Assembly: GCA_017347445.1 (NCBI GenBank)
Contig: AP021856.1
Coordinates: 186,001 to 250,000 of the forward strand
Length of the DNA: 64,000 nt
DNA from: Candidatus Brocadia pituitae
Lineage (GTDB): Bacteria > Planctomycetota > Brocadiia > Brocadiales > Brocadiaceae
Direction of reading: 5' to 3'
Under the pieces are notes generated by a model, which saw only the letters and a program-made list of their open reading frames with translations, did no database searches and was not told the DNA's origin. Made by a program: the position numbers and the translations under genes. Shown one piece after another: positions 4,274-31,099 of this stretch (within the stretch, counting starts at the first letter, position 1; each line of letters starts with the position of its first letter).

Positions 4274-5299
4274 TTACCGCTGATGACAAACGGTACACGC
4301 AATCCCCATCGGATTGAGATGTGGCGGCTCACCGGCCCTGCCTATGGGGTGGCAACCAGCCTGAGTGCAATTTCCGGCAAAGGGGGGATGTGGTGAATCT
4401 ATTGCAGAGGGATGCGTTGGGGTGGGATGGCATACCGTGCAATTGACCATTGAAATGGGGAAATGGCAATTGACACAATGGCGGTTTCTGGTATTTTCTC
4501 CGCCCCACGAAGCGTTATGGCTTAACGGCGTTGTGCTCTCATGGCAGCGCACACAAAAATCCTCCTGATGGCATACGCTGCATTTCTTCCGTTCCCATGA
4601 TGCTGCAAACCCATGGGTCTTTCTGCGCCAGGTGTTATTGTGATTTCTCGGTTTTTGATCCTGATGACAGTTGATACACCAGTAATTATCATTATGGCAC
4701 CGGTTACAGTACTCCTGATTGTAATAGAACTCGCTTCCATGTTTTAATATCCATCGGGGATCATCGTGATTTACCCACCGGTCTTCATGATAGAGTGGCA
4801 TCCGATTCTTTTTAATATGCTTGTGACAAACGTTACACGCGATCTTTTCTTTCCCCCGTTCTTTGTGACACGGAATGCAGGAGCCAAACATATCCGGGAT
4901 AAGGTCCTGGGTAATTGCGTCACTTGTCTCAATACCCGCATGACACTGGTTGCAGGCCACATTATTTTCCAAATGTACCTTATGGGTAAATTTTAAATCC
5001 CGATATTTTTTCGGGATATTATGCTTTACCTTTATTTCCATGCCCGGTTTTGTGTGGCACAACAAACATGATTCAGGATTGCTGGTATCAAAATTTTTCA
5101 TATGGCAGGCGAGACATTTTGCCATCTTGGGCCATGTAGGCTCGAGAGTCTCCCTATAAGAGTGGCACATATTACAGTCTTTTAAACCCCTCTTCATATG
5201 CCTGGCGTGGCTGAAATGTATCTCCGACTCTTTACAGCCACCCAGCATCGTAAAGGTAACAAAAGTTACGATAGAAATGAGATAATAGATTTTTTTCAT
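4274..5299 (-). CDS. Multihaem c-type cytochrome, lipoprotein (14 haem motifs)
   Basis: 341 residues with a lipoprotein signal (MKKIYYLISIVTFVTFTMLG followed by GC, cysteine 22), so it should be anchored to a membrane outside the cytoplasm. I count 13 CXXCH motifs (CNMCH, CLACH, CLLCH, CNQCH, CIPCH, CNVCH, CNRCH, CINCH, CSVCH, CVRCH, CVNCH, CTVCH, CTVCH) plus one CX4CH (CTQAGCH near residue 315). Many extra histidines (HARH, HKVH) can serve as distal ligands. It follows the beta-barrel gene after ~117 bp containing a long palindrome. The pair could form a porin-cytochrome route across the outer membrane; that is inference. The exact family is not recognised. Confidence 0.9.
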   Translation of the reverse strand: MKKIYYLISIVTFVTFTMLGGCKESEIHFSHARHMKRGLKDCNMCHSYRETLEPTWPKMAKCLACHMKNFDTSNPESCLLCHTKPGMEIKVKHNIPKKYRDLKFTHKVHLENNVACNQCHAGIETSDAITQDLIPDMFGSCIPCHKERGKEKIACNVCHKHIKKNRMPLYHEDRWVNHDDPRWILKHGSEFYYNQEYCNRCHNDNYWCINCHQDQKPRNHNNTWRRKTHGFAASWERKKCSVCHQEDFCVRCHESTTPLSHNASWGGENTRNRHCVNCHFPISMVNCTVCHPTPTHPSAIDSPHPPFAGNCTQAGCHPIGRAGEPPHLNPMGIACTVCHQR

Positions 5300-5416: not shown

Positions 5417-6814
5417 TTAGAAATTAACACTATAAGAAAGCAAGAGTTGATGAAATTTATCCGGTTCTGTGTCGCTTATTTCAGACGTCCATCGCATCGT
5501 TATATCAGATTGTTTTGTTAGTAAATATTTAAGCCTGAGATAATACGTGCGGACATCGATCTTTTGCTCAATATCCCTTGTGTACTCATTATCCAGGATC
5601 GTCTGCAGATCGTTGCTTCCAACAAAATTGTACTTATAGATAGAATAGCTCGTGCCAACACCCACGTCAAACTTCCCAAATTTTTTGTCATAGTCAACAC
5701 CAAGGTCTATCGTATGATCAATACCCTTCACGTTCCAATATTCTACGGTAAAGGCTGCTTTGGATGCTTGTAAAAGGACATTATTCACGGCGAATGAAAA
5801 AAACGTCCTGTTATAGTCGCGATTGAAGGCGTCTTCATCATCTTTGTCTATCACACGCCTATAATCATAACCGCCGGACATACCAAACTTTTCTCCCAAA
5901 TCCTTATATCCCGTGATGCTGATGAGTTCAAAAGGCTCCAGAGTTCCCAGGAGTTGATAGAAAGGAGAAATGTTGTTGCTCTGCTCACCTAATGAATGAA
6001 TGAACCGGTAATATGACACCTGAATGTTTGCATTCCAGTCGAACTTATCCCATGATAATTTGACCAGGAAATCCTTTGGCAACGTGTTCAGGAGGGTATA
6101 TCGTCCATAAAAATTAAAATCATCACAAATCTTTTGCCACAGATTCAGCCCCACCTCATCATCGGCAAACTCGTCGTCAATAATACGAACGTAATCCAGG
6201 GTTGTGCGGGTATCCACAAAAGGCCGGAAGGCCACCCCGCTTCCTGCAACGGTATCAAAATAGGTGCTCGAATATTGTGAAACCCTTAGACCGCCGAAGA
6301 TATAGCTTTCAACAGGGCCAATGTGCTGTTCGTACTTTGCCCCATCAAAGAGAATATTTTCAATAGAGTATACATACTGACGGCCGAGGCGAAGATTGGA
6401 CTTATCAATGACAAGATTCTTGATATCAGCGTACAAATAATACATACGCCCATTGTATTGATGGTCGTAACTGTCAAGAATATCCCGAAAAGCACTGGAC
6501 TCAGGCTCTCTTCCGTCGAGGTCGGCAGAAAATCTTCCTGAACCTGATATGGTTACCTTATCATGGAAAAGAGGTTTTGTCTTAAACCGGAGATAGTCAT
6601 AGGTATCGTGATCCTCGTCACTACCGTCCGCCCAACGGCCTTCATATTGTGCCCGAAAATTTCCTGAAATAAAATCTTTATAGGTAAAGCCCGACTCACT
6701 TACACCCGTTATGATATCAGCAGCGTTCTCGGTCGATGCAAAAAGAATAACAGGAAGCAAGATGTTCCCCAGGATGAAAATTACTGTGATCTTTAACATG
6801 AACAAACGCATCAC
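5417..6814 (-). CDS. Outer-membrane beta-barrel protein (porin-like)
   Basis: 465 residues with a signal peptide (MMRLFMLKITVIFILGNILL...FAS) and a C-terminus LLLSYSVNF ending in phenylalanine, the usual barrel-assembly signal. The body alternates short polar turns with strands rich in Y, F and R (for example NLRLGRQYVY, FNFYGRYTLL, TYYLRLKYLL). Specific family not certain; it resembles barrels with alternating Y/F strands found next to multihaem cytochromes. Placed directly before the 14-haem lipoprotein gene on the same strand. Size is compatible with the barrel of a porin-cytochrome complex, but it could also be a simple porin. Confidence 0.75.
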   Translation of the reverse strand: MMRLFMLKITVIFILGNILLPVILFASTENAADIITGVSESGFTYKDFISGNFRAQYEGRWADGSDEDHDTYDYLRFKTKPLFHDKVTISGSGRFSADLDGREPESSAFRDILDSYDHQYNGRMYYLYADIKNLVIDKSNLRLGRQYVYSIENILFDGAKYEQHIGPVESYIFGGLRVSQYSSTYFDTVAGSGVAFRPFVDTRTTLDYVRIIDDEFADDEVGLNLWQKICDDFNFYGRYTLLNTLPKDFLVKLSWDKFDWNANIQVSYYRFIHSLGEQSNNISPFYQLLGTLEPFELISITGYKDLGEKFGMSGGYDYRRVIDKDDEDAFNRDYNRTFFSFAVNNVLLQASKAAFTVEYWNVKGIDHTIDLGVDYDKKFGKFDVGVGTSYSIYKYNFVGSNDLQTILDNEYTRDIEQKIDVRTYYLRLKYLLTKQSDITMRWTSEISDTEPDKFHQLLLSYSVNF

Positions 6815-6991: not shown

Positions 6992-7606
6992 TCAATCAGG
7001 ATTATCTGCAGAAGTTTTTAGGAAAGATACAGATTGTATCTGTTTTGTCTTTGTGTAGATGAAATCTCCCGTGGGATTACCATCGCCGTCTGCTTCATTT
7101 CCAGCGGCATAAAAGGTTATTGGGCCGGTTTTGTCTAAGGGGGACTTCCACCTAACCCTCCACGTCTTCTTTTTATTGCCGGCAGCCGTATGCTCTATAT
7201 ATTTACCCTTGTCCTCTTTTCTTAATCCTCTGGATTTATCGTTTGGGGAGATGACGCGAGTAAATTTCCCCGTCTTTTTAAATTTCCCAACCCTGTTATC
7301 ATGCGCATCCAATGCCGTCATCTCAAACCCGTGAAACGTTCCGGCTGATTCTGCAAATGAAATTTCTAGTTCGATGAATTTGCCGGGAATATATGTGCCA
7401 GCCCCGGTAATTAAAAATTTTGCTTCTCCTGAATTGAGTTCGAATGAATTATGACAGCCGGTATCATGGCAGGTGCCTTCGTCGCCGGGGGCGCCTGCCC
7501 GGTAAGCTGGCGGTCCACCCGACCAGGCATAGAGAACGTTTGTGAACAAGCTATACATTATAAAACCTGTTGTAATACCAGCCACAAATTTTCTGACACA
7601 CTTCAT
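6992..7606 (-). CDS. Exported Reeler/choice-of-anchor-V type protein with CX4CH motif (paralogue 1)
   Basis: 204 residues with a signal peptide ending near VLYAWSGG. Then comes GGPPAYRAGAPGDEGTCHDT followed by GCHN, giving CHDTGCH, a CX4CH arrangement instead of the usual CXXCH. The rest (about 55-190) is a beta-sandwich with GKFIELEISFAESAGTFHGF and WRVRWKSP...ITFYAAGNEADGDG, as in Reeler/choice-of-anchor-V proteins that often carry one c-type haem site. It is about half identical by eye to the 8618-9220 protein. Whether haem is attached to CX4CH needs proof. It is located outside the cytoplasm. Confidence 0.75.
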   Translation of the reverse strand: MKCVRKFVAGITTGFIMYSLFTNVLYAWSGGPPAYRAGAPGDEGTCHDTGCHNSFELNSGEAKFLITGAGTYIPGKFIELEISFAESAGTFHGFEMTALDAHDNRVGKFKKTGKFTRVISPNDKSRGLRKEDKGKYIEHTAAGNKKKTWRVRWKSPLDKTGPITFYAAGNEADGDGNPTGDFIYTKTKQIQSVSFLKTSADNPD

Positions 7607-7750
7607 AAAGATCCCTCCTTTTTTCGCTAAAACTACCTAGCGCGGCTACACCGCAACCAAAGCTTTAAAACCGTCTTCCAATAGTGTGTATTTGATTTTT
7701 TTAAAGTGGAATCCTAACCACTGGAACCATACACGACAGAGGAGGACGGC

Positions 7751-8367
7751 AATGGAAAAGTTTCTTGTGCGGTATCATAGCAAAATCACGGGGATACTTT
7801 CAACCTTTAATCGAATGATATTTAAAAGGCATATTTTGCCATTTTTCCAAGAGAGCAATGGACATTATTATTTGTTTCAGGAGAAGATATTGTTTAAGGA
7901 TTTCGGGACGTATGCGAAGAAGGTATCAGAGGTAATTAAGGATAATGCAAGAGAGCTACCGGCAAAGCCTTCTTGAGATCTACCCTGAACCGGTAGAACA
8001 TGCCTTAGTGAACTTCAATGCCGCTGACGTCATGGTCTTTTTGGGGAGAAAGTTAACGGGTAACTTTCAAGGAGGGATTATAACGGATACGAAAAAGAGG
8101 CCACAAGGGGTTCACATGAAACACCGCATGAAGAAAAATTCTCTGAAGATGTATGATAAGTGGAGTGTCTTAGGAGTGGAGACGACCATGAATAACCCCC
8201 GAGAATTTAAGATATACCGTAAGGTAGAGCGGTGTGGAAAAAAAGTCATGAGATGGATACCGATGGGCAAGGGCGTATTCAATCTTTACCGGTATGCTGA
8301 AGTATCAAAAATTGTCAACGAGCGTTATCTGGAGGCATTGTCTGTTCTCATACCCCTGAACGTTTGA
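7751..8367 (+). pseudogene. Decayed transposon-associated gene (MEKFLVRYHSKITG family), internally deleted
   Basis: The N-terminal part MEKFLVRYHSKITGILSTFN... (7751-7976) and a C-terminal part in another frame from about 7945 (IYPEPVEHALVNFNAADVMV followed by FLGRKLTGNFQGG, then KKRPQGVHMKHRMKKNSLKM) match the two ends of a ~450-aa protein family that I recall as multi-copy in planctomycete genomes. The middle, roughly 200 residues, is missing and the junction is out of frame; the far C-terminus also seems short. It is the only rightward gene between the two leftward Reeler-like paralogues and probably inserted there. The family's function is unknown to me. Confidence 0.65.
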
Positions 8368-8617
8368 GCCGTTTTAAAAGAAAGACTTTCCAGTGCTTCT
8401 AAAAAATGTTGCCTAAAAACTTCCTAAAAAAAGAATTTTTTACAGAGTAATACTGTAGTTGCTTCGATTTTGAATACCGCATGATACAAGCGATTTTCTG
8501 GCGCAGACCCTTACCTGGGACAAAGATGTTGCTTGTACAAGACGATTTTTAAGAAAATCCTGATCCGGATGAGGACACCAATTTTTGTTTGCTCACCATC
8601 GTGTCTCTTATTGAAAA

Positions 8618-9220
8618 TTAAGGCCCGGAAGCTCCTGCAACAATATTTGCTGTTGCCGAGTAAACATAATCTTTAACTAAACTGTCACCGACGATTGCTT
8701 CGACCCCAGCGGCATAAAATGTTATCGGATCAGCGGCAGAGCGGGGAGCAACCCATTTGAACCTCCATTGTTTCTTTTTGATGCCCTTAGAAGTATGCTC
8801 GATATATTTACCTTTGTCCTCTTTTTTAAGCCCTCGATAGTCGTTTGGTGGAATAACCTGCGTGGTATTCCCTATTTTTTTAAATTTTCCAACCCTTTTC
8901 CCGTTAGCGTCAACCGCAGTCATCTCAAACCCGTACGCTATCCCCTGCGTATTGCTAAAGGATACCTCTATTTTAACGCTCTTGCCGGCGGAGTAGATGG
9001 GCGGTGCAATAATTGACAACTTTGCGTTTCCCGAATTAAGGCTGTATGAATTGTGACACTCGTCCGCATGACACGTACCCTTATCACCAATTGCACCTGT
9101 CCGATAGGCGGGAGGACCTTCAGGCCATGCCCCCAGGGTATTTGCAAACAAAAGACTGGTGGTTATGCTAAATACAAAACACACAATAGTGTTTCTTGGA
9201 ATTTTCATCTGATTAGCCAC
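8618..9220 (-). CDS. Exported Reeler/choice-of-anchor-V type protein with CX4CH motif (paralogue 2)
   Basis: 200 residues; signal peptide to about FANTLGAWPEG, then PPAYRTGAIGDKGTCHADEC with H next, that is CHADECH, again CX4CH at the same place as in the 6992-7606 protein. The beta-sandwich region keeps GFEMTAVDANGKRVGKFKK, GLKKEDKGKYIEHTSKG and ITFYAAGVEA. It lies 18 bp downstream of the 217-aa exported protein and probably shares its transcript. The two paralogues are separated by the inserted pseudogene at 7751-8367. The 250 bp between (8368-8617) show no gene. Confidence 0.75.
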   Translation of the reverse strand: MANQMKIPRNTIVCFVFSITTSLLFANTLGAWPEGPPAYRTGAIGDKGTCHADECHNSYSLNSGNAKLSIIAPPIYSAGKSVKIEVSFSNTQGIAYGFEMTAVDANGKRVGKFKKIGNTTQVIPPNDYRGLKKEDKGKYIEHTSKGIKKKQWRFKWVAPRSAADPITFYAAGVEAIVGDSLVKDYVYSATANIVAGASGP

Positions 9221-9238
9221 TTTTGATCGTTTCAGGTT

Positions 9239-9892
9239 TTATTCTTGATGAGCACCTTCACGTTGTATGTTCACTTCACCGGCAATTTTCAGCGGATAAT
9301 CTTTCCTGTTCAGATTGCCCACGTCGTAGGTTGTAAGCGCAGGACTTATTTTGAAACTTATTTTAACAAATGAACTGGTAATGACTGCTTTACCCTTTGA
9401 GATATATGCGTTAGCAAATCGTAATGTTTTGCCACTTTCGGTGATGCCTCTGCCATTGGTTATGGAGAAACATTCCTCCAACCCCAAGGCATCCTGCACC
9501 GTTTTCCCATTTTTATTCAAAATCCTTTCTATGATGTCAGCCATACCGTCTTCGCATAAATCCAACGGAAATTTTTTGCTCGTTACGCTATACTTATTTT
9601 CCCGGTAAGAGCTTACCGTTGCTGTTCCTGCTTCCAGGAGGATGCCGCACTCTGATTCCTCCGATACCAACTCAAATTTCAATATCGCCTCATCAAAATT
9701 TCCGTTGGTTTCTTCATGCCCCCACTGAGTTATATCCGCCACTCCTTTTACCGGCTCCATTATCTCCTCATGCAACCCGGAGATCTTGATAGTCCCGTGA
9801 AAATTAACCGCCTGATGGGCAAACGTTTGACACTCGGAACCAAAAACAACCACAAACAAAAAAACAAAAACCCCCGTAAGGCATCTTTTCAT
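9239..9892 (-). CDS. Exported protein of unknown function (217 aa)
   Basis: Signal peptide MKRCLTGVFVFLFVVVFGSE then CQTFAHQAVNFHGTIKISGL. The mature part looks beta-rich, with three cysteines (ECGIL, DLCEDG, EECFS). No membrane segment and no domain recognised. It sits between the GEVED-domain gene (96 bp upstream) and Reeler-like paralogue 2 (18 bp downstream) on one strand, so it is likely part of the same exported-protein operon. Confidence 0.65.
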   Translation of the reverse strand: MKRCLTGVFVFLFVVVFGSECQTFAHQAVNFHGTIKISGLHEEIMEPVKGVADITQWGHEETNGNFDEAILKFELVSEESECGILLEAGTATVSSYRENKYSVTSKKFPLDLCEDGMADIIERILNKNGKTVQDALGLEECFSITNGRGITESGKTLRFANAYISKGKAVITSSFVKISFKISPALTTYDVGNLNRKDYPLKIAGEVNIQREGAHQE

Positions 9893-9988
9893 GAAATCCT
9901 CCGTTTGACAATACCTGCTTTCAATGATAACAAGAGGTACTGTGCAGGAAATAAATGCACAGTACCTCTTAATAAATCAAAAATCTCT

Positions 9989-10591
9989 TTAAAACTCTTT
10001 GAAACGCACCATTTCTTCCCCTCCTTCAAGCAGATTGTAATCTTCAATCTCACCAAAGGCAGTAGAAATGTCACCAAAAACAGGCGATGGGCATCCATAG
10101 GAAACCCAAGCCCTTGCCCAGAAAGGCCCTTCATGGGTATGTACTGGTACCGTAAAACTATCCTTAAACCCCGTCACCCTTCTTCCTTTCAGCATGGCCA
10201 GATACTTGCCTTTCGTCTCGTCTTTGAAGGAATTTATCGCCATTTCCCCGGGATCATTCCAATCGCCATCGTGATTCCAGTCAATATATACTCTAAAATA
10301 TACCCCTTGAGGATAAAACTTTCTCTTCGTGGTGGTGTTCAGTAACCAGATAACGTCAATTTGTTCCCCGGCTTTCCATTCTTCCGTATCGTGACTGAAA
10401 AAGACACCATCGTCGGCGCATGCGTCTTGCCCCAGGAATTCATACTCCTGATTAAAGACAGCTGCTTCCGGGTATGGAGCGGGAGCAGAACCTACATCTA
10501 TCATCGTTTCTCCTTTTGCCGGCGACAGAAACATAAGCAAAGCAAAAAACAGAGCACCGGCAAGCAAGACGAACATTTTATTGCGGGTCAT
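9989..10591 (-). CDS. Exported GEVED-domain protein
   Basis: 200 residues. Signal peptide MTRNKMFVLLAGALFFALLM through SPAKG. The mature part has the Ca-binding type loop DWNHDGDWNDPGE (about residues 105-117), a central FTVPVHTHEGPFWARAWVSY and the closing motif FGEIEDYNLL, which is the mark of GEVED domains of cell-surface and secreted proteins. Two cysteines (DACADD, YGCPSP) may pair. Same strand and close spacing (31 bp) after the CbiX-like gene. Function unknown; an adhesion or structural role outside the cell is the usual guess for the domain. Confidence 0.7.
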   Translation of the reverse strand: MTRNKMFVLLAGALFFALLMFLSPAKGETMIDVGSAPAPYPEAAVFNQEYEFLGQDACADDGVFFSHDTEEWKAGEQIDVIWLLNTTTKRKFYPQGVYFRVYIDWNHDGDWNDPGEMAINSFKDETKGKYLAMLKGRRVTGFKDSFTVPVHTHEGPFWARAWVSYGCPSPVFGDISTAFGEIEDYNLLEGGEEMVRFKEF

Positions 10592-10622
10592 AGAAAATTC
10601 TCCTTTCGTAAGATATTCCTTG

Positions 10623-11690
10623 TCATTTTTGACAATCTATATAGTGATCCTTTCGCAGCGCTTCCTCAAACATTGAAACCGCCCAATCAGCCAATGATGC
10701 TGGCTCGTAAAGCAGAAAATTCGCCTTCGTATACATGCCCGCATCCAGCAGGTCTTTGGTACCTAATTTATTCCCGGCGTCCTGGATGCTGCAATCCTGT
10801 GGGTCCCATACCTGATCATGCACTTTACTCCAGCTGGAGACACGAGCTGGCACCCATATGACCTTGCGCCCCTCATTGTACGCAGCAGTAATCCTATTCC
10901 TGATATCCTCCACGGCAACGCGTTTTTGCTCGCACCAATCTTCACGAAGGGTGCCGTATTGAACGTCATAAAATCCACCCATGCTCTTGACGTCACTTGC
11001 ATATTTTGCCAATACATTATCACGGTAATCCTGGTCTATGACGTCGTCTCCATCTCCATGTCCGATCAGGAATACCACTTCATTGTCTTTGTCGGTACTA
11101 TATTCCAGGGCTCGTTCCAAAAACACAGATGAAATATCTTCGTGATAATCTATTGCATTGGTGGCAATATACTGAATATCGCTAAAATTGTGAAATCTCC
11201 TATGCACACCACCCATATGCATGCACAGATCGTTCTCGGGATCATACGTCTCGGGGCATTCTATGATTTCGTCCAAATAGTTACTTTTGCCTGGCTCCCC
11301 GTCAACCTGACAACCAATGGCCCATTTGATCGCATTAACGGTGCTGGAATTTGTGTTCAGATAAAAAGGGATAACGACCACTTTTTTTACTCTTTGAGAT
11401 GCAAGGCGCCGAATGGCCTCATCTTCCGTCTGCCACATCTTATGCGTCTGCATATCCATAACCATGTGCAGGCCACTGTCCACCGGATATTCCGGCAATC
11501 GTTTTTGCACCTCGTTCACAAACTCGAAGAATTTTTGATCCTGACTAAAATAGCCGTGTCCAACAATTAACAATCCCGTGTCTGAACCGTTCTCAGCCAT
11601 TGTTGTACGCAGATTGGCGCTATTGATGCCAACAATTGCTCCCAAAAAGAAGATCCACGACAGTGCCCTCATCTTTTTTCTCAATTTCAT
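10623..11690 (-). CDS. Exported CbiX/sirohydrochlorin-chelatase-like protein
   Basis: 355 residues from the ATG at 11690, which has an excellent ribosome site (AAGGAGGG, 4 bases before). Signal peptide MKLRKKMRALSWIFFLGAIV. Two similar chelatase-like halves: GLLIVGHGYFSQDQKFFEFV...KKVVVIPFYLNT and EVVFLIGHGDGDDVIDQDYR...KVIWVPARVSS. Each has the HG motif that carries the first metal ligand in CbiX/CbiK, but in the first half the second usual histidine seems replaced (NTNSSTVNAIKW). Class II chelatases insert Co or Fe into tetrapyrroles; an exported one is unusual, though periplasmic CbiK forms are known. Head gene of the exported-protein block; its promoter is now displaced by the IS630 element. 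Confidence 0.7.
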   Translation of the reverse strand: MKLRKKMRALSWIFFLGAIVGINSANLRTTMAENGSDTGLLIVGHGYFSQDQKFFEFVNEVQKRLPEYPVDSGLHMVMDMQTHKMWQTEDEAIRRLASQRVKKVVVIPFYLNTNSSTVNAIKWAIGCQVDGEPGKSNYLDEIIECPETYDPENDLCMHMGGVHRRFHNFSDIQYIATNAIDYHEDISSVFLERALEYSTDKDNEVVFLIGHGDGDDVIDQDYRDNVLAKYASDVKSMGGFYDVQYGTLREDWCEQKRVAVEDIRNRITAAYNEGRKVIWVPARVSSWSKVHDQVWDPQDCSIQDAGNKLGTKDLLDAGMYTKANFLLYEPASLADWAVSMFEEALRKDHYIDCQK

Positions 11691-11764: not shown

Positions 11765-12909
11765 GTGCTTAATTGCATAAATTCATTATAGTATTTCTTA
11801 ATTGCGAACCCTTAACCTCTCTCTTACGCCACACGAAAGGTTTTGCATTCGGTTGATAAGCTTCGATGAATGCCTCGATTGCACACCTCAATTGCTCAAC
11901 ACTTTTAAAGCTGGCGTTCTTCAAAGCTTTTCTCGAAAGAATACCAAACCATATTTCCACCTGATTGAGCCAACTTGCAGAAGTAGGTGTAAAATGGAAT
12001 TTAACATTCGGGTGTGCTGCCAACCATTCCCCGTTTCGCTTGTGAATACAGTAGTTGTCGAGAATAACATGGATTTCCTTCTTGTCGCTATCCGGTAAAT
12101 CCAAAAGCAGTTGATCCATGAATGCCAGAAATTCCACTCGTCTTTTTAATTCTGTTGTTTGCGTATGAATAGTTCCTGTTGCCACGTTGAGAGCTGCAAA
12201 CAGGTTCAGCGTCCCATGACGCTTATAGGTACTTTTAAGACCATGTACGATTTTTCTGTTGCTTGTACATACATAGCCTTTGGTTCGCTCTAAAGCTTGT
12301 ATACTTGGCTTTTCGTCAACAGAAATCACTATGGCATTCTCTGGCGGGGACAGGTATAAACCTACGATATCAGCCGCCTTGGTCGTAAATTCCGGGTCAG
12401 TACTCACACACCAGCTTCTTTGCCGCGCAAGGCAAATGCCTTCCTTTCGAAGAATACGCCAGATGGCATCGTCTGATGCCCCCAAATGCTTTGCAAGGGA
12501 GGGACCATCCCAACTTGCCTGTCCTTTTGGCGGCTCAAGCTCCAATGTCTTCAAAACCTGATTGCGAAACTCCTTATCATATTTCGCAGGTTTGCCGGAA
12601 CGAGGCAGATCGTACAAGCCTTTGATCCCGTTTGTACTAAAGCGACCACGCCACTCAATAACAGTTTTCTGGGATGTCCCAAGGGCTGTGGCCACCTTAT
12701 TCACCTGCTCTCCGGCAAGCAGCATGTTCATGATTTTAGCTCGTCCAACAAGCCTCCACTCTGCACTCCGACTATTAGCCCATTCGGCAAGAATCTGCCG
12801 ATCTTGCTCCGAACAACAAGGTATTGGTGCTTTTCTTGGCATGGCAGACCTCCTTCATATAGAAATAAAAGGAGTCTACTATATTTAACTTATTTTTGCA
12901 AGTATACAC
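11765..12909 (-). mobile_element. IS630-family insertion sequence with TA target duplication
   Basis: 1145 bp bounded by TA (11763-11764 and 12910-12911). The ends are imperfect inverted repeats: left GTGCTTAATTGCATAAATTC, right end read inwards GTGTATACTTGCAAAAATAA, both followed a little further in by ATAGTA. TA target sites are typical of IS630/Tc1. It inserted between the leader at ~13.4 kb and the ribosome site of the CbiX-like gene. Confidence 0.85.
11769..12842 (-). CDS. IS630-family transposase
   Basis: 357 residues, full length. An N-terminal helix-turn-helix part (EQVNKVATALGTSQKTVIEW) is followed by the DDE catalytic domain: VISVDEKPSIQ, IHVILDNYCIHK and SASWLNQVEIWFGILSRKAL. No frameshift or missing catalytic residue is visible, so it may still be active. 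The ribosome site GGAGG lies just before the ATG at 12842 (rev. of 'gcagacctcctt'). Confidence 0.92.
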   Translation of the reverse strand: MPRKAPIPCCSEQDRQILAEWANSRSAEWRLVGRAKIMNMLLAGEQVNKVATALGTSQKTVIEWRGRFSTNGIKGLYDLPRSGKPAKYDKEFRNQVLKTLELEPPKGQASWDGPSLAKHLGASDDAIWRILRKEGICLARQRSWCVSTDPEFTTKAADIVGLYLSPPENAIVISVDEKPSIQALERTKGYVCTSNRKIVHGLKSTYKRHGTLNLFAALNVATGTIHTQTTELKRRVEFLAFMDQLLLDLPDSDKKEIHVILDNYCIHKRNGEWLAAHPNVKFHFTPTSASWLNQVEIWFGILSRKALKNASFKSVEQLRCAIEAFIEAYQPNAKPFVWRKREVKGSQLRNTIMNLCN

Positions 12910-13108
12910 TAGATTATAAGGAACTCCTCCTTTCCGCCTTAATGAAAGAAAAACATTAAAAACAACTCCTTTCACTAAGATGAAGTGAACCGGCTGAAAC
13001 TCACCAATCTCTTGTGAAATTACCGATCCTTTTTCTTATCCCTGCCACCTGCCAGATCACCTCCTTATCCCAATACATCAGGTGCATTATTAAAGTAGCG
13101 CCTGATAA

Positions 13109-15283: not shown

Positions 15284-16264
15284 ATGAATAAATGGATACT
15301 CCTAACACATCAAATTGCTCAAGATGCACCAAACCTTAGAGTAAAGGTCTGGCGGCATCTGAAAAAACTGGGAGCGGTACTCTTCAAAAATGCCGTATAT
15401 TTACTCCCTTATACGAAGGAACACGAGGAGAGTATGCAGTGGATTTGTAAGCAAATTAGGGATAGTGGAAGTGATGCATCACTCTTTATTACTGAGTCAA
15501 TGGACAAAAAGCACAAGGAAGAGATTATAAAAACCTTTCAAGAATCCTGTAATAAGGAGTATGTTCCATGTATTGATCAATGCAGTGATGTGTTAAAACA
15601 AATAGAACAGATAGAAGGGACTGAGGGGGTGACGGACCGTTCTGTAGAAGATTTGAAAAGGAAGTTAAGCGAGATACTAAAAAGTGCCGACGAGATAGCA
15701 AAGATCGATTTTTTCCATGCCCCCCAGAGAGATGAGTTCCTGAAAAAAATTGAATCTATACGCAAGAGGATAGAAAAATGGTCTAAAAAAATGAAAAAAG
15801 AAGTACCGGTGGCCAATACAGTTTATCAAAAAAAGGATTTTCTGAGGAAAAAATGGGTAACGCGAAAAGATATTTATATCGACCGTTTAGCATCTGCCTG
15901 GCTTATCAGAAGATTTATCGATCCAAATGCAAAGTTCGTCTTTATATCCAAAGGAGAAAATAACCTGCCAAAAAATACGATACCTTTCGATATGTATGGT
16001 GCAGAATTTACCCATCATGGCGATGCCTGTACCTTTGAAACCTTAATCAGGGTGTTTGATTTAAAAGCTCCTGCTTTACAACCAATTGCAGAAATTGTGC
16101 ATGATATAGATTTGAAAGATAATAAATATAATCGCAAAGAGTCCGAAGGAATAGATCAAATTATTGCCGGGCTTAGCAAAAAACTCAACAACGATAATAA
16201 GTTATTGGAGAAGGGTATGGAGATCTTTGATGCCCTTTATCAAAGTTACTCTTCAAACATATAA
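15284..16264 (+). CDS. chrB: Chromate resistance protein ChrB
   Basis: 326 residues. N-terminal ~90 residues are the ChrB N-domain (WILLTHQIAQDAPNLRVKVW, RHLKKLGAVLFKNAVYLLPY). A charged helical linker (about 105-185) follows, then the C-terminal domain with KWVTRKDIYIDRLASAWLIR, RFIDPNAKFVF, FDMYGAEFTHHGDACTFETL and EIVHDIDLKDNKYNRKESEG. ChrB is known as a chromate-responsive regulator/accessory factor of the ChrA efflux pump. Here no chrA is present; an MFS transporter follows instead, so the substrate may be another oxyanion or metal. Intact. Confidence 0.88.
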   Translation: MNKWILLTHQIAQDAPNLRVKVWRHLKKLGAVLFKNAVYLLPYTKEHEESMQWICKQIRDSGSDASLFITESMDKKHKEEIIKTFQESCNKEYVPCIDQCSDVLKQIEQIEGTEGVTDRSVEDLKRKLSEILKSADEIAKIDFFHAPQRDEFLKKIESIRKRIEKWSKKMKKEVPVANTVYQKKDFLRKKWVTRKDIYIDRLASAWLIRRFIDPNAKFVFISKGENNLPKNTIPFDMYGAEFTHHGDACTFETLIRVFDLKAPALQPIAEIVHDIDLKDNKYNRKESEGIDQIIAGLSKKLNNDNKLLEKGMEIFDALYQSYSSNI

Positions 16265-18858: not shown

Positions 18859-19857
18859 ATGAGATTTATTACCTTGATGATTTTCGTTCCGTTACTCTTC
18901 CTAAGAATATGCCTTGGAGGAGAGGTCATTGTTTATACCTCTGAAGATAAGGTCTTCTCGGAACCTATTCTTCAACAGTTTGAGAAAAAGACAGGGATAA
19001 AGGTTCGTGCCATTTATGATACGGAAGAGACAAAGAGTGCCGGTTTAGTTAACCGCCTGATTGCTGAAAAGGATAATCCACGGGCTGATGTATTCTGGAG
19101 CGGGGATCCGGTACGACCTGTATTACTTGAGATGAGAGGTATTACAACACCGTATATTTCAAGTGCTGCGGCGGATATTCCAAAGATATACAAGGATGAA
19201 GAGGGGCATTGGACTGGTTTTTCAGCACGTGCCCGCATTATTCTTTATAATACAAATCTCGTAACCACAGAGGAGAAACCGTTGTCTCTCTTTGATCTTG
19301 CAAAACCAAAATGGAGAGGCCAAGTTGCAATTGCGAACCCATTATTTGGTACTACCTCCATACATATGGCAGTCCTATTTATCACATTGGGCGATGAGAA
19401 GGCAAAGAAATTTCTCCAGGACTTGAAAGCAAATGGAGTAAAAATTGTTTCATCGAACGGTGAGGTAAAACGGCTCGTGACAAGAGGAGAGGTTATCGCA
19501 GGTCTTGCCGATACGGATGATGCAAATGTTGCTATTCGGGAGGGAAGTCCGGTAAAGATCGTGTTTCCGAACCAACAAGATATGGGTACGCTTATTATGC
19601 CGAATATGGTTTGTCTTATAAAGAATAGCCCAAATCCGGAAAATGGGAAAAAATTGATCGATTTTCTTTTGAATAAAGAAGTTGAAAAAAGCCTTGCGTG
19701 GGCACCGTGTGCACAAATGCCACTGAGATACGATGTACGAGCACCCGCAGATGTATTGACAATTGATGCCGTAAAAGGTATGAATGTCAATTACCACGAC
19801 GTCGCAAAGAAACTGGAAGCGATCGGAGAATTTCTCAAGCAATGGGCGGGGTATTAA
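18859..19857 (+). CDS. ABC transporter substrate-binding protein (iron(III)/FutA-like family)
   Basis: 332 residues, signal peptide MRFITLMIFVPLLFLRICLG, then EVIVYTSEDKVFSEPILQQF, and later ARADVFWSGDP-type hinge (NPRADVFWSGDPVRP) as in the FbpA/FutA family. The usual Tyr-Tyr pair that binds iron is not seen at the expected place (GLADTDDANVAIREGSPVKI instead), so the ligand may not be ferric iron. Ribosome site GAGAGAGGTG before the ATG. Its permease and ATPase partners are found 9.5 kb further on (29364-32128) in the same orientation, separated by the defence-type island. Confidence 0.8.
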   Translation: MRFITLMIFVPLLFLRICLGGEVIVYTSEDKVFSEPILQQFEKKTGIKVRAIYDTEETKSAGLVNRLIAEKDNPRADVFWSGDPVRPVLLEMRGITTPYISSAAADIPKIYKDEEGHWTGFSARARIILYNTNLVTTEEKPLSLFDLAKPKWRGQVAIANPLFGTTSIHMAVLFITLGDEKAKKFLQDLKANGVKIVSSNGEVKRLVTRGEVIAGLADTDDANVAIREGSPVKIVFPNQQDMGTLIMPNMVCLIKNSPNPENGKKLIDFLLNKEVEKSLAWAPCAQMPLRYDVRAPADVLTIDAVKGMNVNYHDVAKKLEAIGEFLKQWAGY

Positions 19858-19934
19858 ATGCAGTATTTCATATTATGCTAGACTCCATTGATACTCTTAC
19901 CCTTGCAATATGAATAAATATGAATACACCTTAA

Positions 19935-19954
19935 TGGCAATTCATGAATTGCCA
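19935..19954. repeat. REP palindrome copy 1 (island left edge)
   Basis: TGGCAATTCATGAATTGCCA, 20-bp core, followed by CTACA only on the right. Intergenic, just beyond the helicase stop. Confidence 0.8.
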
Positions 19955-19981
19955 CTACAAATATAAGATACTCTTTATTTC

Positions 19982-21229
19982 TCACGAAACAAAATCAATG
20001 GTAATCAACTTTAATAATTCCGGATTATACGGTGGAATTTCTTCCCTCTCAAGAGATAGCTTTCCTTCGAAAAATTCTGATATCTCTCCAATAAGTCTTT
20101 TCCAGCTTTTATGATCATTCTTATAGTTTTTCCACACAGCCCTTAACTTTTGAAGCCTCTTTTTGGTAAGACTTATCGTTAATAACTTTTCCTTCGTCCT
20201 TTCCCATTTTTCCTCAATTTTTTTGTCCTCAGCAAAGTCGAGGAGATACTCATCTATTCTTAAATCTATCTCTCTGATAAGCGTGGATACAAATTTCTTG
20301 CTTTTGTCTGAGTTTAATTCGCCGAAAGTAGAATCAACTGTTTCTCGTTGCTCTACTTCCTTATAAATTAACTCTATCTCTTTGATTGTCTCTGAATTCA
20401 AATTATAAACCTTTTCAAAGAAATTTGGTATTTCTCTTACCTCATTTGGAAGGCAGGAGATATAATCCAGTATCTTTGTCTTATTGGTAAATTTTTCACC
20501 TCTTATAAAGTCGTAAAAAAACCAAAAGTGGAAATCATCACCGTATTTATAATACAAAAATATCCCTTTTGTCCCTTTCTTGAGACCACTGTATACCCCC
20601 AATGGAATTGATTCCAGTTCCTGTATAGCCCTTGCTTTTAAATAATCCTTCAACGGCTGATAAAACTTTTCTCCGCCGCCAAAGACCTCTTTTTCTAACT
20701 CATCAAATATGGTTGCGTCCTGTTCCTTTATCCTTCTTATAACGCCAAATACCTTGGGGTTAACCTCCTCCCCCAATACGGTAACGTCGAGCCCTACAGC
20801 GCTATCTATATTTCGAATCTTATTCTGAAGGACTTCTACAAGGCGCAAGAGGTCTTCCAGCTCTTCTTCCGGAAAGAAATTATACACATAGATTTCCTTA
20901 AACGGGGAACCAATTCTGTCAATTCTGCCCGCTCTTTGAATCATCCTGGTAGGGTTCCAATGCAGATCGTAATTGATGAGATAACGGGCCTTCTGGAGGT
21001 TCATTCCCTCAGAAAGGACATCAGTACTCATAAGAATATTGATCTTCCCATCCATAAAGTTGGATACAATTTCTGTGCGTTTAGCAGCCGAAGTTACCCT
21101 TCCGGAAATCTTTTCAATACTTATTTTGGAAAATAAGGAATCTTCAGAAATCTTCTCGTAGATGTAATCCAGGGTATCGGCGTAATAGGTAAAAATAACC
21201 ACTTGTCCTTTTGTGCTAAGTTTCAGCAA
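19982..21229 (-). CDS. SNF2-type helicase, C-terminal part (frameshifted from 21216-23132)
   Basis: 415 codons beginning at a TTG inside the end of the N-terminal part. It holds helicase motifs IV-VI: VVIFTYYADTLDYIYEKI, ILMSTDVLSEGMNLQKARYL and MIQRAGRIDRIGS, followed by a ~230-residue helical tail without a known domain. There is no ribosome site for separate translation. The preceding run of eight A (transcribed strand) would restore a ~1050-aa helicase if it were seven A. So this is the second half of one gene, now separated by mutation, by slippage or by a sequence error. Confidence 0.8.
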   Translation of the reverse strand: MLKLSTKGQVVIFTYYADTLDYIYEKISEDSLFSKISIEKISGRVTSAAKRTEIVSNFMDGKINILMSTDVLSEGMNLQKARYLINYDLHWNPTRMIQRAGRIDRIGSPFKEIYVYNFFPEEELEDLLRLVEVLQNKIRNIDSAVGLDVTVLGEEVNPKVFGVIRRIKEQDATIFDELEKEVFGGGEKFYQPLKDYLKARAIQELESIPLGVYSGLKKGTKGIFLYYKYGDDFHFWFFYDFIRGEKFTNKTKILDYISCLPNEVREIPNFFEKVYNLNSETIKEIELIYKEVEQRETVDSTFGELNSDKSKKFVSTLIREIDLRIDEYLLDFAEDKKIEEKWERTKEKLLTISLTKKRLQKLRAVWKNYKNDHKSWKRLIGEISEFFEGKLSLEREEIPPYNPELLKLITIDFVS

Positions 21230-23132
21230 TCTTTTTTTTCAATTCTTTTAGCTTAGCATCGGCTTCTGCATTAATCTCCTCAACCTTTTTGCCCATCTCT
21301 TTAAAAAGAGTTATGTCCTTTTCTATATCCCTGAAAAACTTTTCTTTTCTGTAATTATCAATGTTTATATCTTCCAACTCGTCTATAAATTCCTCAGGTG
21401 TTTCCTCATCCTGGCTTGACACATATTTATAAAAAGAATTTTTTGTTAGGAACTTGCCCTTCCCCAAATACTCTTTGAACTTTAGCAAGAAATTTACATG
21501 ATTTGAGATGCTTTTACGAAATGCGTCAACACTGCTTTCGAGTCTCTTTAAGAGGATAGTTCTGAAAATGCCTTCTAACGCCACCATTCGTCCTAACGCC
21601 ATTTCTTCTTCTTTCGATAGTTTCTCTGTTCTGTATTCAGGATCAAGAATCCTGTAATATGCCATTGTTAATTCTTCAGTAATTGTGCGGGATATATCCC
21701 TGTACAGTCCCTGGTACGCCTTATCGAGTTGATAATCGATATTTTCCAGTATCCTTTCAGGAAATAGAATCTTTTTGCCATTTACCTCTGCATCTGGATA
21801 ATTCTGCTTGATATAGTCCCGCGTCCTCCTTATTGATATCTCATTCATAAGATCATTCAACAGGTTAGGGTCTTCTTCCTTATCAACGTCTTTAAAAAAT
21901 TTAAAGAGGTCTAATATGCCCTCTTTCATAAAAGTTTTCTGGTCAGTCAAGGTAAGGAGCATTATTTGCCAGTAAAGGTCCCATATCGTATTGTTGATGG
22001 GTGTGGCTGTAAGGAAGAGGATATAGGGCCTTTCTCCACCCTTTGTTATATGATCCGATATGAGGGTAAAGAAATTCTCCCACCGGTTGGAAAGAGGATT
22101 CCTAAAATTATGGCTTTCATCGACCACTAGTAAAGAGACCTCTGTCATATCACCGCCGATAGCCTGTCGTGCCTTTTGAAGAAATTCTTCAGTAGCAAGC
22201 TCCTCCTGTGACAGTATGCTTTCGGAAAGCAACAAGTCTTTAACCTCATCTCTCCACATATTTCTCAACTGAGCCGGACAGACGATGAGAAACCTCTTTC
22301 TCTTGTAAAATCCAAACTCCTCTATGATTTTTTTTGCAATCCATGTCTTGCCCAAGCCAACTGAATCCGCGACCATACAGGCTTTATACTTTTTAAGTCG
22401 GGTAAAAACCCTTCTTACGGCATCGTCCTGAAACTCTGCAAGGTTAACCTTTGAATCTGGTAACGTTTCTTCTCCCCCCTTTTTTTCTTCGTATTCCGAT
22501 TTAATATCGTCTTTTTGAAGTTCGTAAAGGGATTTTATATAAACCTCATAGGGTGTATATTCCCTCGTCCCAAACCGTGAGGCTTCAAGAATCTTAATAA
22601 GTTCAGCTTTAAAATCTACCGCTTCATTCCAGAATTTATCAAACCACTTTTCCCTTACATACTTAGCCTCAGCCTCAAGGGAAACTGAGTTAAGTTCTGT
22701 GTTGTGAGTCAGCCCTGAAGGGGTAAAGTTTGAAGAACCTACAACAATGAGCTGGTCAAAGATATATGCCTTCCCATGAAGGAATTCCTTGTCATAGAGT
22801 TTTACCTCTACGTTATCTTTATTGAGAAATCGTATGAATTCCTTGACCAGACTATCCTTCTCTTGAGAAAGGTCAAACCCCTCAACCTCTTCCCGAATCA
22901 TTTTTGAAAGTACTTCACCCAACGTAACCTCATTTTTTATCTCCGGTGTCTTTCCCAGAAGCAGGCGAAAATGTCTAACACCTTGAATGTTGTCCTTTAT
23001 AAAAGCAAACGCCTGGATGTTAAAGAAGGCGGTAGCAATATCGAATTGTGTATTGGGAATTTCCTTCAGGACATCGTTAAGGAATGTAGATAACTTTACA
23101 TCGCTGTTGTCTATGATTTTTTTGGGGATCAT
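21216..23132 (-). CDS. PLD nuclease-SNF2 helicase, N-terminal part
   Basis: 638 residues. Residues ~20-190: phospholipase D-like nuclease domain with LHGKAYIFD (H119, K121, D126) and [11 protein letters not shown]. Residues ~235-500: helicase domain 1 with [14 protein letters not shown] (Walker A), [13 protein letters not shown] (DESH box) and [10 protein letters not shown]. The C-terminal ~140 residues are a charged helical insert; it ends [10 protein letters not shown] just after an A8 run. ATG overlaps the toxin gene stop (ATGA). PLD-helicase proteins act in restriction-like and DISARM/Mokosh-like antiphage systems; together with the methylase gene this suggests DNA defence. No DISARM drmA/drmB is present. 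Confidence 0.85.
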
Positions 23133-23512
23133 GGCTTACTCGTTCTTTTTTCACCACTTATCGGCAAGGGGCGAATGCGTATGCGGGTCTGTTCAAAGAC
23201 GACGGCACTTCCTTGCTCTAAAACTTCCTGTATGGCAGGAAGATTTGCAAGCAAAAGTATTAATTGTCTATCAGGACTTCGTTCTGTGCTTCGGCGGAAT
23301 AAGATTATGGATGGCTTGCTCTCTTCGCGCAGAGCCAGCAATGTTCCAAAATCTGTGTCTGCAGAAACGAGTATGCGGTTTTCTTCAGATGCTCTGGAAA
23401 AAATGGTAACATCATCGGATGCTTCTAATCCATAATCGCGAACATGTACGGTATCATGACCAGCTTTGCAGAGTCCCTCAGCAAGTAATGGCGAGAGTGC
23501 GTTATCTATCAA
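23129..23512 (-). CDS. DUF5615 PIN-like toxin
   Basis: 127 residues. Near-front [20 protein letters not shown], then [13 protein letters not shown] and [15 protein letters not shown] carry the acidic residues of the PIN-like fold (D3, D45-region, D66/D68). Such proteins are RNases paired with DUF433 antitoxins. The start is a TTG at 23512 overlapping the DUF433 stop (TTGA); family members normally begin a few residues earlier ([10 protein letters not shown]), and those codons are present in frame but without an ATG. Downstream it overlaps the helicase ATG by 4 bases. Confidence 0.8.
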
Positions 23513-23748
23513 AAATTTCGTGGTAATGTAACCAGAGGGATTTCTCGTTCTCGCACAGCTTCAGAGGCATACTGTAATGCCTCCTGAATATCCCCTAGTT
23601 CCAGATCAGGAAATGCCTTTAGAATGTCCTTTTCTGACATACAGTCGGCAATCATACCCACAACAGTTGCAACTGGAATGCGAAGCCCACGAATACATGG
23701 AACACCACCCATCTGGTTGGGATTAACTGTAATACGGGTAAATTTCAT
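23509..23748 (-). CDS. DUF433 antitoxin
   Basis: 79 residues: [40 protein letters not shown], then [20 protein letters not shown], the classical DUF433 pattern ([18 protein letters not shown]) with a helix-turn-helix. Ribosome site GGAGG lies 6-7 bases before the ATG. It overlaps the DUF5615 toxin by 4 bases, the normal order for these pairs, and would bind the toxin and autoregulate the operon. Confidence 0.88.
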
Positions 23749-23806
23749 TTATCCACCTCCTATATTTGTTTTAGTTTCAGTATTGGAGATAACATTTACT
23801 TAATGC

Positions 23807-24100
23807 TTAAAACTCATTCTGGAGAAAAGTTCCAATATTAACCCACTGGTCAATAAGCTTTTTAGCATCTTCATCCTTCTGAATGACGTCTTTAGGTTTT
23901 ACAAACATCTGGCAATATACCTTTATCATATTTGCCATTACAATCATTATAAGTTTCATTGTAGCAACACACAGGTCTTTCTGAGTCTCTGCGGTTTCTG
24001 CATTACCTACCTGCTGAGCGCTTTGGCATCCTGAATGTGCATATATGCATAAAAAGCTATAAAACTGTTTAGCAAGAATTTCGCTCAAACCGGCAGACAT
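23807..24100 (-). CDS. Unknown protein, C-terminal part (frameshifted from 24145-24651)
   Basis: 97 codons from ATG 24100 (MSAGLSEILAKQFYSFLCIY). Upstream the same frame reads KKLVEKGQWRLQSWTDIG without a stop back to a run of nine A, where the preceding ORF leaves the frame. With ten A the two parts form one ~270-residue protein. No domain recognised; contains a hydrophobic stretch (ATMKLIMIVMANMIKVYCQM). Confidence 0.6.
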   Translation of the reverse strand: MSAGLSEILAKQFYSFLCIYAHSGCQSAQQVGNAETAETQKDLCVATMKLIMIVMANMIKVYCQMFVKPKDVIQKDEDAKKLIDQWVNIGTFLQNEF

Positions 24101-24144
24101 ACCTATGTCCGTCCATGACTGAAGCCTCCACTGTCCCTTTTCAA

Positions 24145-24651
24145 CTAATTTCTTTTTTTTTCATCAAGCTGTTTAAAGACACTGTTATTGTTAATCTTTT
24201 CCTTCAAGGCATCAATGATTTTCTTCTCATCATTAAGCTGCTTTTTCCCGTCTTCAGACCGCGTTAGAAATTTTTGCCTGTCGAGGTAGCTTGCATGAAG
24301 CCATAAGTAATACCTAAAGTCTTTTTCATCATCTGACCGGGGTTCTATGAAAACATAATGAAAAACCAAGAAGGACTCAAGTGCTGCCCTGCCTAAAACA
24401 TTTATCGACCCCGAATCAAAGAAGCTGATTCCTCTATCTGTAACCTTGACACTTGGCAAGGTCGTACTTTCAAAAAGATACAGTGCCGATGCAGCATGCC
24501 CAATAAATTTCTTACAAAGCCCTTCAGCATCTAAAAACCGATTGTCCTCCCCTAAGGTAACGCCTTTATTTGCGTCTGCAACTTTGATTAATGTCTCAAG
24601 CAGCTTTGTATAATCTTCTTGGAAAGGGGGCATCTCATTCATCCCTTTCAC
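24145..24651 (-). CDS. Unknown protein, N-terminal part
   Basis: 168 codons; starts at GTG 24651 or at an ATG a few codons later (MNEMPPFQEDYTKLLETLIK). It has the look of DUF5677-like proteins (LGRAALESFLVFHYVFIEPR, YYLWLHASYLDRQKF) found near defence genes; that match is from memory and uncertain. It ends in DEKKRN directly at an A9 run; the continuation is at 23807-24100. Its start overlaps the stop of the remnant methylase tail (GTGTGA), showing it was once coupled to that gene. Confidence 0.55.
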   Translation of the reverse strand: MKGMNEMPPFQEDYTKLLETLIKVADANKGVTLGEDNRFLDAEGLCKKFIGHAASALYLFESTTLPSVKVTDRGISFFDSGSINVLGRAALESFLVFHYVFIEPRSDDEKDFRYYLWLHASYLDRQKFLTRSEDGKKQLNDEKKIIDALKEKINNNSVFKQLDEKKRN

Positions 24652-24848
24652 ACGCTCCTTGCCTTATCCAGCCAGTTTTTCACCAGTGCGCACACCGCCC
24701 AGCAGTCATCGTTTCGTTTGACTTCCGTTATGTTAATGATGTCAAAAATAGTGTCATCGAGGGTATTGCAGTTTTGTAGTGGCAATTCATGAATTGCCAC
24801 TACATTTCGATTCATTTTTATCGTCTTTTGGATTTTCAAATATTTCAT
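24648..24848 (-). pseudogene. Remnant tail of a second methylase gene
   Basis: The last ~40 codons (NTLDDTIFDIINITEVKRND then DCWAVCALVKNWLDKARSV) are homologous to the C-terminus of the methylase at 25473 (KALDDVVFDILGLTQDERNE, VYWAVCELVKNRLDKAKSV) but only about two thirds alike. The front of the ORF is the palindrome-derived VVAIHELPLQ plus transposase-gene sequence in another frame. It is thus the stump of a paralogous or exchanged methylase gene, cut by the REP transposase unit. Confidence 0.7.
24775..24804. repeat. REP palindrome copy 2
   Basis: 30-bp perfect palindrome with centre CAATTCATGAATTG and outer TGTAGTGG/CCACTACA. In the stump ORF it encodes VVAIHELPLQ; in the transposase frame it supplies the TGA stop. 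Confidence 0.85.
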
Positions 24849-25407
24849 CTTCTAACAAGTCATTTCCTGTTCTTTCAGGATTTTCTCGATCGAGATGCCA
24901 TTTCAACGGATTATTCTGAATATATTCCCTGATCTTGTTCAATTTATCTACATTCCGTATGATGTGCTCGTAATAATTATACTGCCAAAAAGGAATGCCT
25001 GTTGCGTTCCGTGCGATGTTTCCCTGTTTTGCCGCATTCATTTTGAAATATCCAACAACTTTGGGAATGAGCATCCTGCGCCTTTCAATTTTTTGATTCG
25101 TGCAATCTTTCCCCTGTAGGGGCAATTCATGAATTGCCCCTACACCATCGATAATCTTAATGATTCCGTGAATATGGTTGGGCATTACAACAATTTTGTC
25201 TAATTCGATATTGGCATAACGTCCTGTCAAACTATTCCAGCATTCTAAAACAATCTTGCCGAATTGATTTAAAATCATTTCCCCGCCCGTTACATTTCCT
25301 AGTATGCATTCCCTGTTGTAAGTGCATATTGTTATAAAATATGCCCCTGCCCGTGAGTAATCATAGTCTTTAAGCCGTATAGATTTTCTAAACTTTGGAT
25401 GGTTCAT
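24787..25407 (-). CDS. REP-associated tyrosine transposase (RAYT, Y1/HUH family)
   Basis: 206 residues. FRKSIRLKDYDYSRAGAYFI followed by TICTYNRE is the family front; the HUH motif is MPNHIHGIIKI (about 75-85); the catalytic tyrosine region is WQYNYYEHIIRNVDKLNKIR and the end EYIQNNPLKWHLD. Such single-domain enzymes move or process REP palindromes. Exactly such palindromes flank the gene (24775-24804, 25438-25467) and one is inside it (25115-25144), read in frame as VGAIHELPLQG between HUH and Tyr. The stop codon lies within copy 2. Appears intact, so it may have spread the copies in this island. Confidence 0.88.
   Translation of the reverse strand: MNHPKFRKSIRLKDYDYSRAGAYFITICTYNRECILGNVTGGEMILNQFGKIVLECWNSLTGRYANIELDKIVVMPNHIHGIIKIIDGVGAIHELPLQGKDCTNQKIERRRMLIPKVVGYFKMNAAKQGNIARNATGIPFWQYNYYEHIIRNVDKLNKIREYIQNNPLKWHLDRENPERTGNDLLEDEIFENPKDDKNESKCSGNS
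25115..25144. repeat. REP palindrome copy 3, inside the transposase gene
   Basis: 30-bp perfect palindrome, outer arms TGTAGGGG/CCCCTACA; translated VGAIHELPLQ in the transposase. Confidence 0.88.
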
Positions 25408-25437
25408 AATATGTTCGTTTGCAAATTTTATTGTATT

Positions 25438-25467
25438 TGTAGATGCAATTCATGAATTGCATCTACA
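25438..25467. repeat. REP palindrome copy 4
   Basis: 30-bp perfect palindrome with outer arms TGTAGATG/CATCTACA, between the transposase start and the methylase stop (25473). Confidence 0.85.
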
Positions 25468-25472
25468 GAACA

Positions 25473-29230: not shown

Positions 29231-29363
29231 ATAATAGTCCTTATACAAGTGGGAGTAGTTCCGCTGGCCTTTCAAATACGATGACTTCCATTTTTCGACC
29301 TAGTTTATCATATATGCTATCTTCCCACAATTTGATTTTCTCTTAAAATTATAAAATCCAAAG

Positions 29364-30992: not shown

Positions 30993-31035
30993 TACGGTTG
31001 TTTATAATAATAGTATCTTCCAAAAAGATTATTTT

Positions 31036-31068: not shown

Positions 31069-31099
31069 TCCCGTCCGACTTGTTCCGGTTAGGTTTACT

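What the first reader, a model, noticed from the sequence alone, without database searches (positions are those of the whole stretch)
6992..11690. Operon of exported proteins headed by a secreted CbiX-like chelatase homologue
The CbiX-like protein has a signal peptide and two chelatase halves, one seemingly without the second metal ligand; it is followed by a GEVED-domain protein, an unknown exported protein and CX4CH Reeler-like proteins. A tetrapyrrole-binding fold outside the cytoplasm next to single-haem surface proteins hints at an undescribed haem/metal handling or cell-surface system.
Basis: partly seen in the sequence, partly recalled or inferred. Interest (0 to 1): 0.62.

Follow-up and report, generated by a model that had tools for sequence, protein, structure and literature searches.

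The report
Exported chelatase-fold protein with GEVED partner
An anammox bacterium exports a protein built like the enzymes that put metal into haem-type rings, but with a changed active site; it is always encoded next to one particular surface-type protein, which suggests a small haem- or metal-handling pair outside the cytoplasm.

Summary
The window lies in a Brocadia-type anammox genome. 11690-10623 (-) encodes a signal peptide plus two class II chelatase halves (AlphaFold pLDDT 81; VIA Z 21.3 to SirB, 17.8 to periplasmic Desulfovibrio CbiK, 17.4 to Porphyromonas FetB). It is followed by GEVED, an unknown exported protein and two CX4CH choice-of-anchor-V/Reeler proteins. The association is not unique: CbiX-like and GEVED genes occur in exactly the same 7 of 75 genomes of the class and are adjacent in all 8 copies, including a second copy in this genome. 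The rest is looser: a conserved hairpin separates GEVED from the next gene, the unknown protein also occurs elsewhere, and Reeler proteins are in every Brocadiaceae genome. The N-half kept His45, but its catalytic Glu is Met76 and its second His is Ser/Asn. That Glu-to-Met change marks a wider group of exported CbiX-like proteins in Planctomycetota. Four Cys and a second-half His are specific to this clade. Most likely it is a tetrapyrrole- or metal-binding protein outside the cytoplasm, no longer a normal chelatase; binding is untested. Exported chelatase-fold proteins are already known, so this is a new variant of a known kind.

The parts
10623..11690 (-). Exported two-half CbiX-like (class II chelatase fold) protein, 355 aa, signal peptide about residues 1-32
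9989..10591 (-). Exported GEVED-domain protein, 200 aa; strict partner of the CbiX-like gene
   Evidence: PF20009 8.6e-11; same 7 of 75 genomes, adjacent in 8 of 8 copies
9928..9970 (-). Perfect hairpin (AAGAGGTACTGTGCA / TGCACAGTACCTCTT) between GEVED and the next gene; conserved with compensating changes in two relatives; likely terminator or attenuator
   Evidence: sequence, folding of relatives
9239..9892 (-). Exported protein of unknown family, 217 aa; adjacent in 4 of 8 copies, also present elsewhere in relatives
8618..9220 (-). Choice-of-anchor V / Reeler protein 1 with one CX4CH motif (CHADECH)
   Evidence: NF041895 4.1e-24, PF02014 3.3e-6, motif
6992..7606 (-). Choice-of-anchor V / Reeler protein 2 with one CX4CH motif (CHDTGCH); its closest relatives lie at separate loci in other genomes
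   Evidence: NF041895 2.4e-30
5417..6814 (-). Exported protein, probably an outer-membrane porin (judged from its sequence; no Pfam hit); adjacent also in Ca. B. sapporoensis
4274..5299 (-). Multihaem c-type cytochrome, probable lipoprotein: 13 CXXCH + 1 CX4CH, lipobox LGGC
   Evidence: Cytochrome_C7 7.5e-12; also in B. sapporoensis
11769..12842 (-). IS630-type transposase (named from its sequence) lying between the CbiX-like gene and the upstream stretch that adjoins it in the second genomic copy
   Evidence: second copy lacks it

Best explanation
The CbiX-like protein is a class II chelatase fold that is exported and no longer works as a normal chelatase. It binds a tetrapyrrole (haem most likely) or its metal in the cleft between its two halves, outside the cytoplasm, with conserved His45, Met76, His211 and Arg249 lining the site, and works with the GEVED protein encoded by the next gene. 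Shown: fold (by model), export signal, residue changes, strict CbiX-GEVED gene linkage, purifying selection. Inferred: the ligand, the cleft as binding site, the physical partnership and the location.
For: AF2 model pLDDT 81, pTM 0.82; SirB Z 21.3, periplasmic D. vulgaris CbiK Z 17.8, FetB Z 17.4. PDB profile match to CfbA 1e-14 and SirB 1.3e-7, with the catalytic Glu aligned to Met and the second His aligned to Ser. Met at that place in 25 of 26 non-PepSY exported relatives (one Leu), while the five PepSY-linked ones keep His-Glu-His; His211 and Thr247 kept in all 26 and Arg249 in 24. Four Cys invariant only in the window clade, which fits an oxidising compartment. CbiX and GEVED in the same 7 of 75 genomes, always adjacent. 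dN/dS 0.11-0.13. A normal cytoplasmic CbiX fused to a CbiC-like part exists in this genome, so the exported one is probably not needed for cobalamin. Exported CbiX-like genes lie beside a P1B ATPase in four genomes and beside PepSY_TM-type genes. IhtB, a CbiK-like haem-binding lipoprotein, is a precedent (PMC10913741).
Against: No ligand was tested. Model coordinates could not be inspected, so the site geometry is inferred from sequence alignment. Glu is not essential in every CbiX: the cytoplasmic CbiX of this genome has Gln there, and in Pp-CbiX the active site lies in the C-half with a mobile second His (PMC4063343), so activity is not excluded. No TonB receptor or haem transporter was seen next to the pair, though this was not searched systematically. 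GEVED is known from adhesins, not haem proteins.
Confidence: 0.42

Rival explanations
1. It is still a working chelatase (metal insertion or removal) acting outside the cytoplasm with the C-terminal half as active site (His211 and His291), like CbiK or Pp-CbiX.
For: His211 and His291 are invariant in the window clade; Pp-CbiX and CbiK use the C-half and a mobile second His; periplasmic CbiK and the IhtB hypothesis are precedents.
Against: Arg249 stands near the Glu place; His291 is two residues beyond the expected place and absent from the other exported clades; no source of metal-free tetrapyrrole outside the cytoplasm is known here.
Confidence: 0.2
2. It is a metal-binding chaperone or sensor (Co, Ni, Zn, Cu or Fe) without tetrapyrrole, feeding or guarding a transporter.
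For: The second genomic copy lies between cobalamin genes and a ZnuA/ABC set; other exported CbiX-like genes lie beside a P1B ATPase with HMA_2; CfbA and SirB structures hold free metal (titles); an HMA_2 gene lies downstream of the pair in G019.
Against: The second copy is a recent partial duplication, so its neighbours may be chance; the window copy has no such transporter directly beside it.
Confidence: 0.2
3. The pair is a structural or adhesive surface module in which the chelatase fold serves only as a scaffold.
For: GEVED is a domain of fibrillar adhesins (PMC10952558); two GEVED orthologues carry an extra C-terminal part.
Against: His45, Met76, His211 and Arg249 stay conserved through the clade, which a pure scaffold would not need.
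Confidence: 0.12

Closest known systems
Desulfovibrio vulgaris periplasmic cobaltochelatase CbiK-P (PDB 2xvx/2xvz)
   Same: Class II chelatase fold, exported; Z 17.8, 12% identity
   Different: Canonical chelatase site (from literature) against His-Met-Ser/Asn in the N-half here; no GEVED partner known
Porphyromonas gingivalis IhtB/FetB (PDB 9b86)
   Same: Exported class II chelatase-fold haem-binding protein; Z 17.4; thought to take iron from haem
   Different: Lipoprotein in a TonB-receptor and ABC operon; the window protein has no evident lipobox and other neighbours
Bacillus SirB and other CbiX sirohydrochlorin chelatases
   Same: Best fold match, Z 21.3 over 245 residues; profile match 1.3e-7
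   Different: Cytoplasmic, catalytic Glu and second His present; the window protein is exported and lost both in the N-half
Exported CbiX-like proteins of other Brocadiales and Planctomycetota found here
   Same: Two halves, exported, same Glu-to-Met change
   Different: No GEVED partner seen; other neighbours (P1B ATPase, ApbE, PepSY); lack the four Cys and His291

Membership tests
Class II chelatase superfamily (fold) | Two Rossmann-like halves superposable on SirB/CbiK/HemH | tested here: met
   Z 21.3 over 245 residues to SirB, 17.8 to CbiK-P; Foldseek 3.8e-8
CbiX (PF01903) | Score above the curated cut-off (22 bits) | tested here: not met
   17.4 bits; the relative in L042 scores 53.5
Sirohydrochlorin chelatase (active enzyme) | His-Glu-His site in the N-half (CfbA, SirB) | tested here: not met
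   His45 kept, Glu->Met76, His->Ser116
Sirohydrochlorin chelatase (active enzyme) | Functional site in the C-half (CbiK, Pp-CbiX type) | tested here: inconclusive
   His211 kept, His291 two residues beyond the expected place, Arg near the Glu place
Exported chelatase-fold haem proteins (CbiK-P, IhtB/FetB) | Signal peptide on a chelatase fold | tested here: met
   n-region, hydrophobic stretch and start conserved in seven copies; separate cytoplasmic CbiX present
Exported chelatase-fold haem proteins (CbiK-P, IhtB/FetB) | Haem binding | not testable with these tools
   needs purified protein
IhtB/FetB (Iht) system | TonB receptor and ABC transporter genes next to it | tested here: inconclusive
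   none among the neighbours scanned, but neighbours were not searched systematically
GEVED (PF20009) | Score above cut-off | tested here: met
   42.9 bits against 24.4
Choice-of-anchor V (NF041895) | Score above cut-off | tested here: met
   85.3 and 105.6 bits against 42
Ferrosome-like (fez) cluster | P1B ATPase with HMA_2 next to the gene | tested here: not met
   This genome's closest P1B ATPase lies at 1,672,069, not in the window

The most novel reading that the evidence does not exclude
A whole branch of exported CbiX-like proteins in Planctomycetota turned a chelatase site into a His/Met haem- or soft-metal-binding site, and in Brocadia and Jettenia one clade forms a dedicated pair with a GEVED protein: a new haem or metal relay outside the cytoplasm of anammox bacteria.
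Probability: 0.3. Interest if true: 0.62.

Novelty: new variant of a known kind. Interest (0 to 1): 0.42.

Why it matters
Anammox bacteria are among the most cytochrome-rich organisms known, yet how they handle haem and metals outside the cytoplasm is poorly described. A conserved exported chelatase-fold protein with an altered site and a fixed partner is a concrete, testable candidate. It would also show a further route, besides IhtB and CbiK-P, by which a biosynthetic chelatase fold was reused outside the cytoplasm.

Tried and rejected
Cobalamin or other riboswitch upstream: none in Rfam. AF2 with seven close sequences: pLDDT 48, not used; a 31-row alignment gave 81. Mis-set start: rejected. 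Single operon down to the cytochrome: not supported (hairpin; porin and cytochrome genes adjacent in only one of the six other genomes among the stretches fetched). Reeler proteins as specific partners: rejected, in 33 of 33 genomes. Unknown protein as strict partner: rejected. Type-2 CbiX of G019 contig C45: counted out, as its proteins look identical to those of G026 and G019 has 6% contamination. Pseudogene: dN/dS argues against it, though the G014 copy is split over two frames. The genome-contig scan found only Brocadia and Jettenia, but its patterns were clade-specific.

Full report
Setting. The window is positions 186001-250000 of a 4.08 Mb, single-contig genome. Named relatives holding the same gene are Ca. 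Brocadia and Ca. Jettenia records, so the host is an anammox bacterium of the Brocadia type; 'Brocadia sinica' is my guess from the genome size.

The genes. On the minus strand: CbiX-like (11690-10623), GEVED (10591-9989), an unknown exported protein (9892-9239), choice-of-anchor-V/Reeler 1 (9220-8618) and 2 (7606-6992), then a porin-like protein and a cytochrome with 14 haem motifs. The start at 11690 has AGGAGGG in front, and the signal sequence is conserved in position in seven aligned copies.

What the first protein is. Pfam CbiX is below cut-off (17.4 of 22 bits), but a profile of it with its relatives finds CfbA and SirB in the PDB. AF2 on a 31-row alignment gave pLDDT 81 and pTM 0.82. 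Best fold matches: SirB Z 21.3; further down, ferrochelatases (about 19), periplasmic CbiK of D. vulgaris (17.8) and FetB of P. gingivalis (17.4). The two halves match each other in profile comparison (probability 94%).

The site. In the N-half His45 is kept; the catalytic Glu is Met76; the second His place is Ser116, with Asn or Asp at 114. Among the exported relatives, five PepSY-linked ones keep His-Glu-His, and 25 of the other 26 carry Met (one Leu). In the C-half, His211 and Thr247 are kept in all 26 and Arg249 in 24. His291 and Cys127, 253, 300 and 353 are invariant only in the seven-row window clade. A tree puts that clade together with full support, beside a planctomycete group with moderate support (92/82). 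Pp-CbiX shows that a C-half site with a mobile second His can be active (PMC4063343), so loss of activity is likely but not shown.

Linkage. CbiX-like and GEVED occur in the same 7 of 75 genomes of the class and are adjacent in all 8 copies. The genomes are related, so these are not independent events. The unknown protein adjoins in 4 of 8 copies and occurs in 11 genomes overall. Reeler-type proteins are in all 33 Brocadiaceae genomes. A hairpin after GEVED is kept with compensating changes in two relatives. So the core is a two-gene unit. dN/dS is 0.11-0.13.

Second copy. CbiX-GEVED is repeated at 1,440,803-1,442,501 (99% identical). That copy lacks the unknown gene and the IS630 element, and has a truncated Reeler 1. 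It lies just after cbiD and two tetrapyrrole methylase genes, with a ZnuA/ABC set on the other side.

Wider family. Other exported CbiX-like genes occur in Brocadiales and Planctomycetota. In three genomes of one sister genus and one of another they adjoin a P1B metal ATPase, with FMN_bind-like and ApbE genes next to it in the one read closely; this genome has that cluster without the CbiX gene. In three others they adjoin a PepSY_TM-type gene (one confirmed by Pfam). DUF2325 lies near several of both kinds. These contexts point to metal, iron or haem handling outside the cytoplasm, but they belong to related clades and do not prove the function of the window protein.

Verdict. Real, conserved and selected; a new variant of the known exported chelatase-fold proteins. 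Binding of haem or metal is the best reading and remains to be tested.

Noticed in passing
G000:C1:1440803-1442920 (L028:8705-10996): Second, 99% identical copy of the CbiX-GEVED pair with a truncated Reeler 1, between cobalamin genes and a ZnuA/ABC set
   Followed up: partly
window 11766-12966: IS630-type element between the CbiX-like gene and its upstream stretch; absent from the second copy
   Followed up: partly
L032 about 4940-5060 and L034 about 15690-15820: Short conserved ORF after GEVED (motif YExPxVxxYxxxEIFEKLGPAHTGY) that looks like a peptide-natural-product precursor
   Followed up: no
L097 5882-17437 (G000:C1 about 1.67 Mb); L038; L042: Conserved cluster HMA_2 / P1B ATPase / FMN_bind-ApbE / TlpA / cytochrome / multicopper oxidase, with an exported CbiX-like gene inserted in some genomes
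   Followed up: partly
L087, L088, L089: Exported CbiX-like gene with intact His-Glu-His beside a PepSY_TM-type gene; bacterioferritin-like gene close by in L087 and L088
   Followed up: partly
L001:817-1836: Cytoplasmic CbiX fused to a CbiC-like part, with Gln at the catalytic Glu place
   Followed up: no
window 7686-8367 (+): Two small plus-strand ORFs of unknown origin in the gap between the Reeler genes; may be a mobile-element remnant
   Followed up: no
L034:16804-17845: CbiX-like gene of G014 split over two frames: assembly error or decay
   Followed up: no
window 18859-32128: Iron-type ABC transporter genes (binding protein, permease, ATPase) separated by a roughly 9 kb stretch of helicase/methylase-like genes (read from sequence only)
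   Followed up: no
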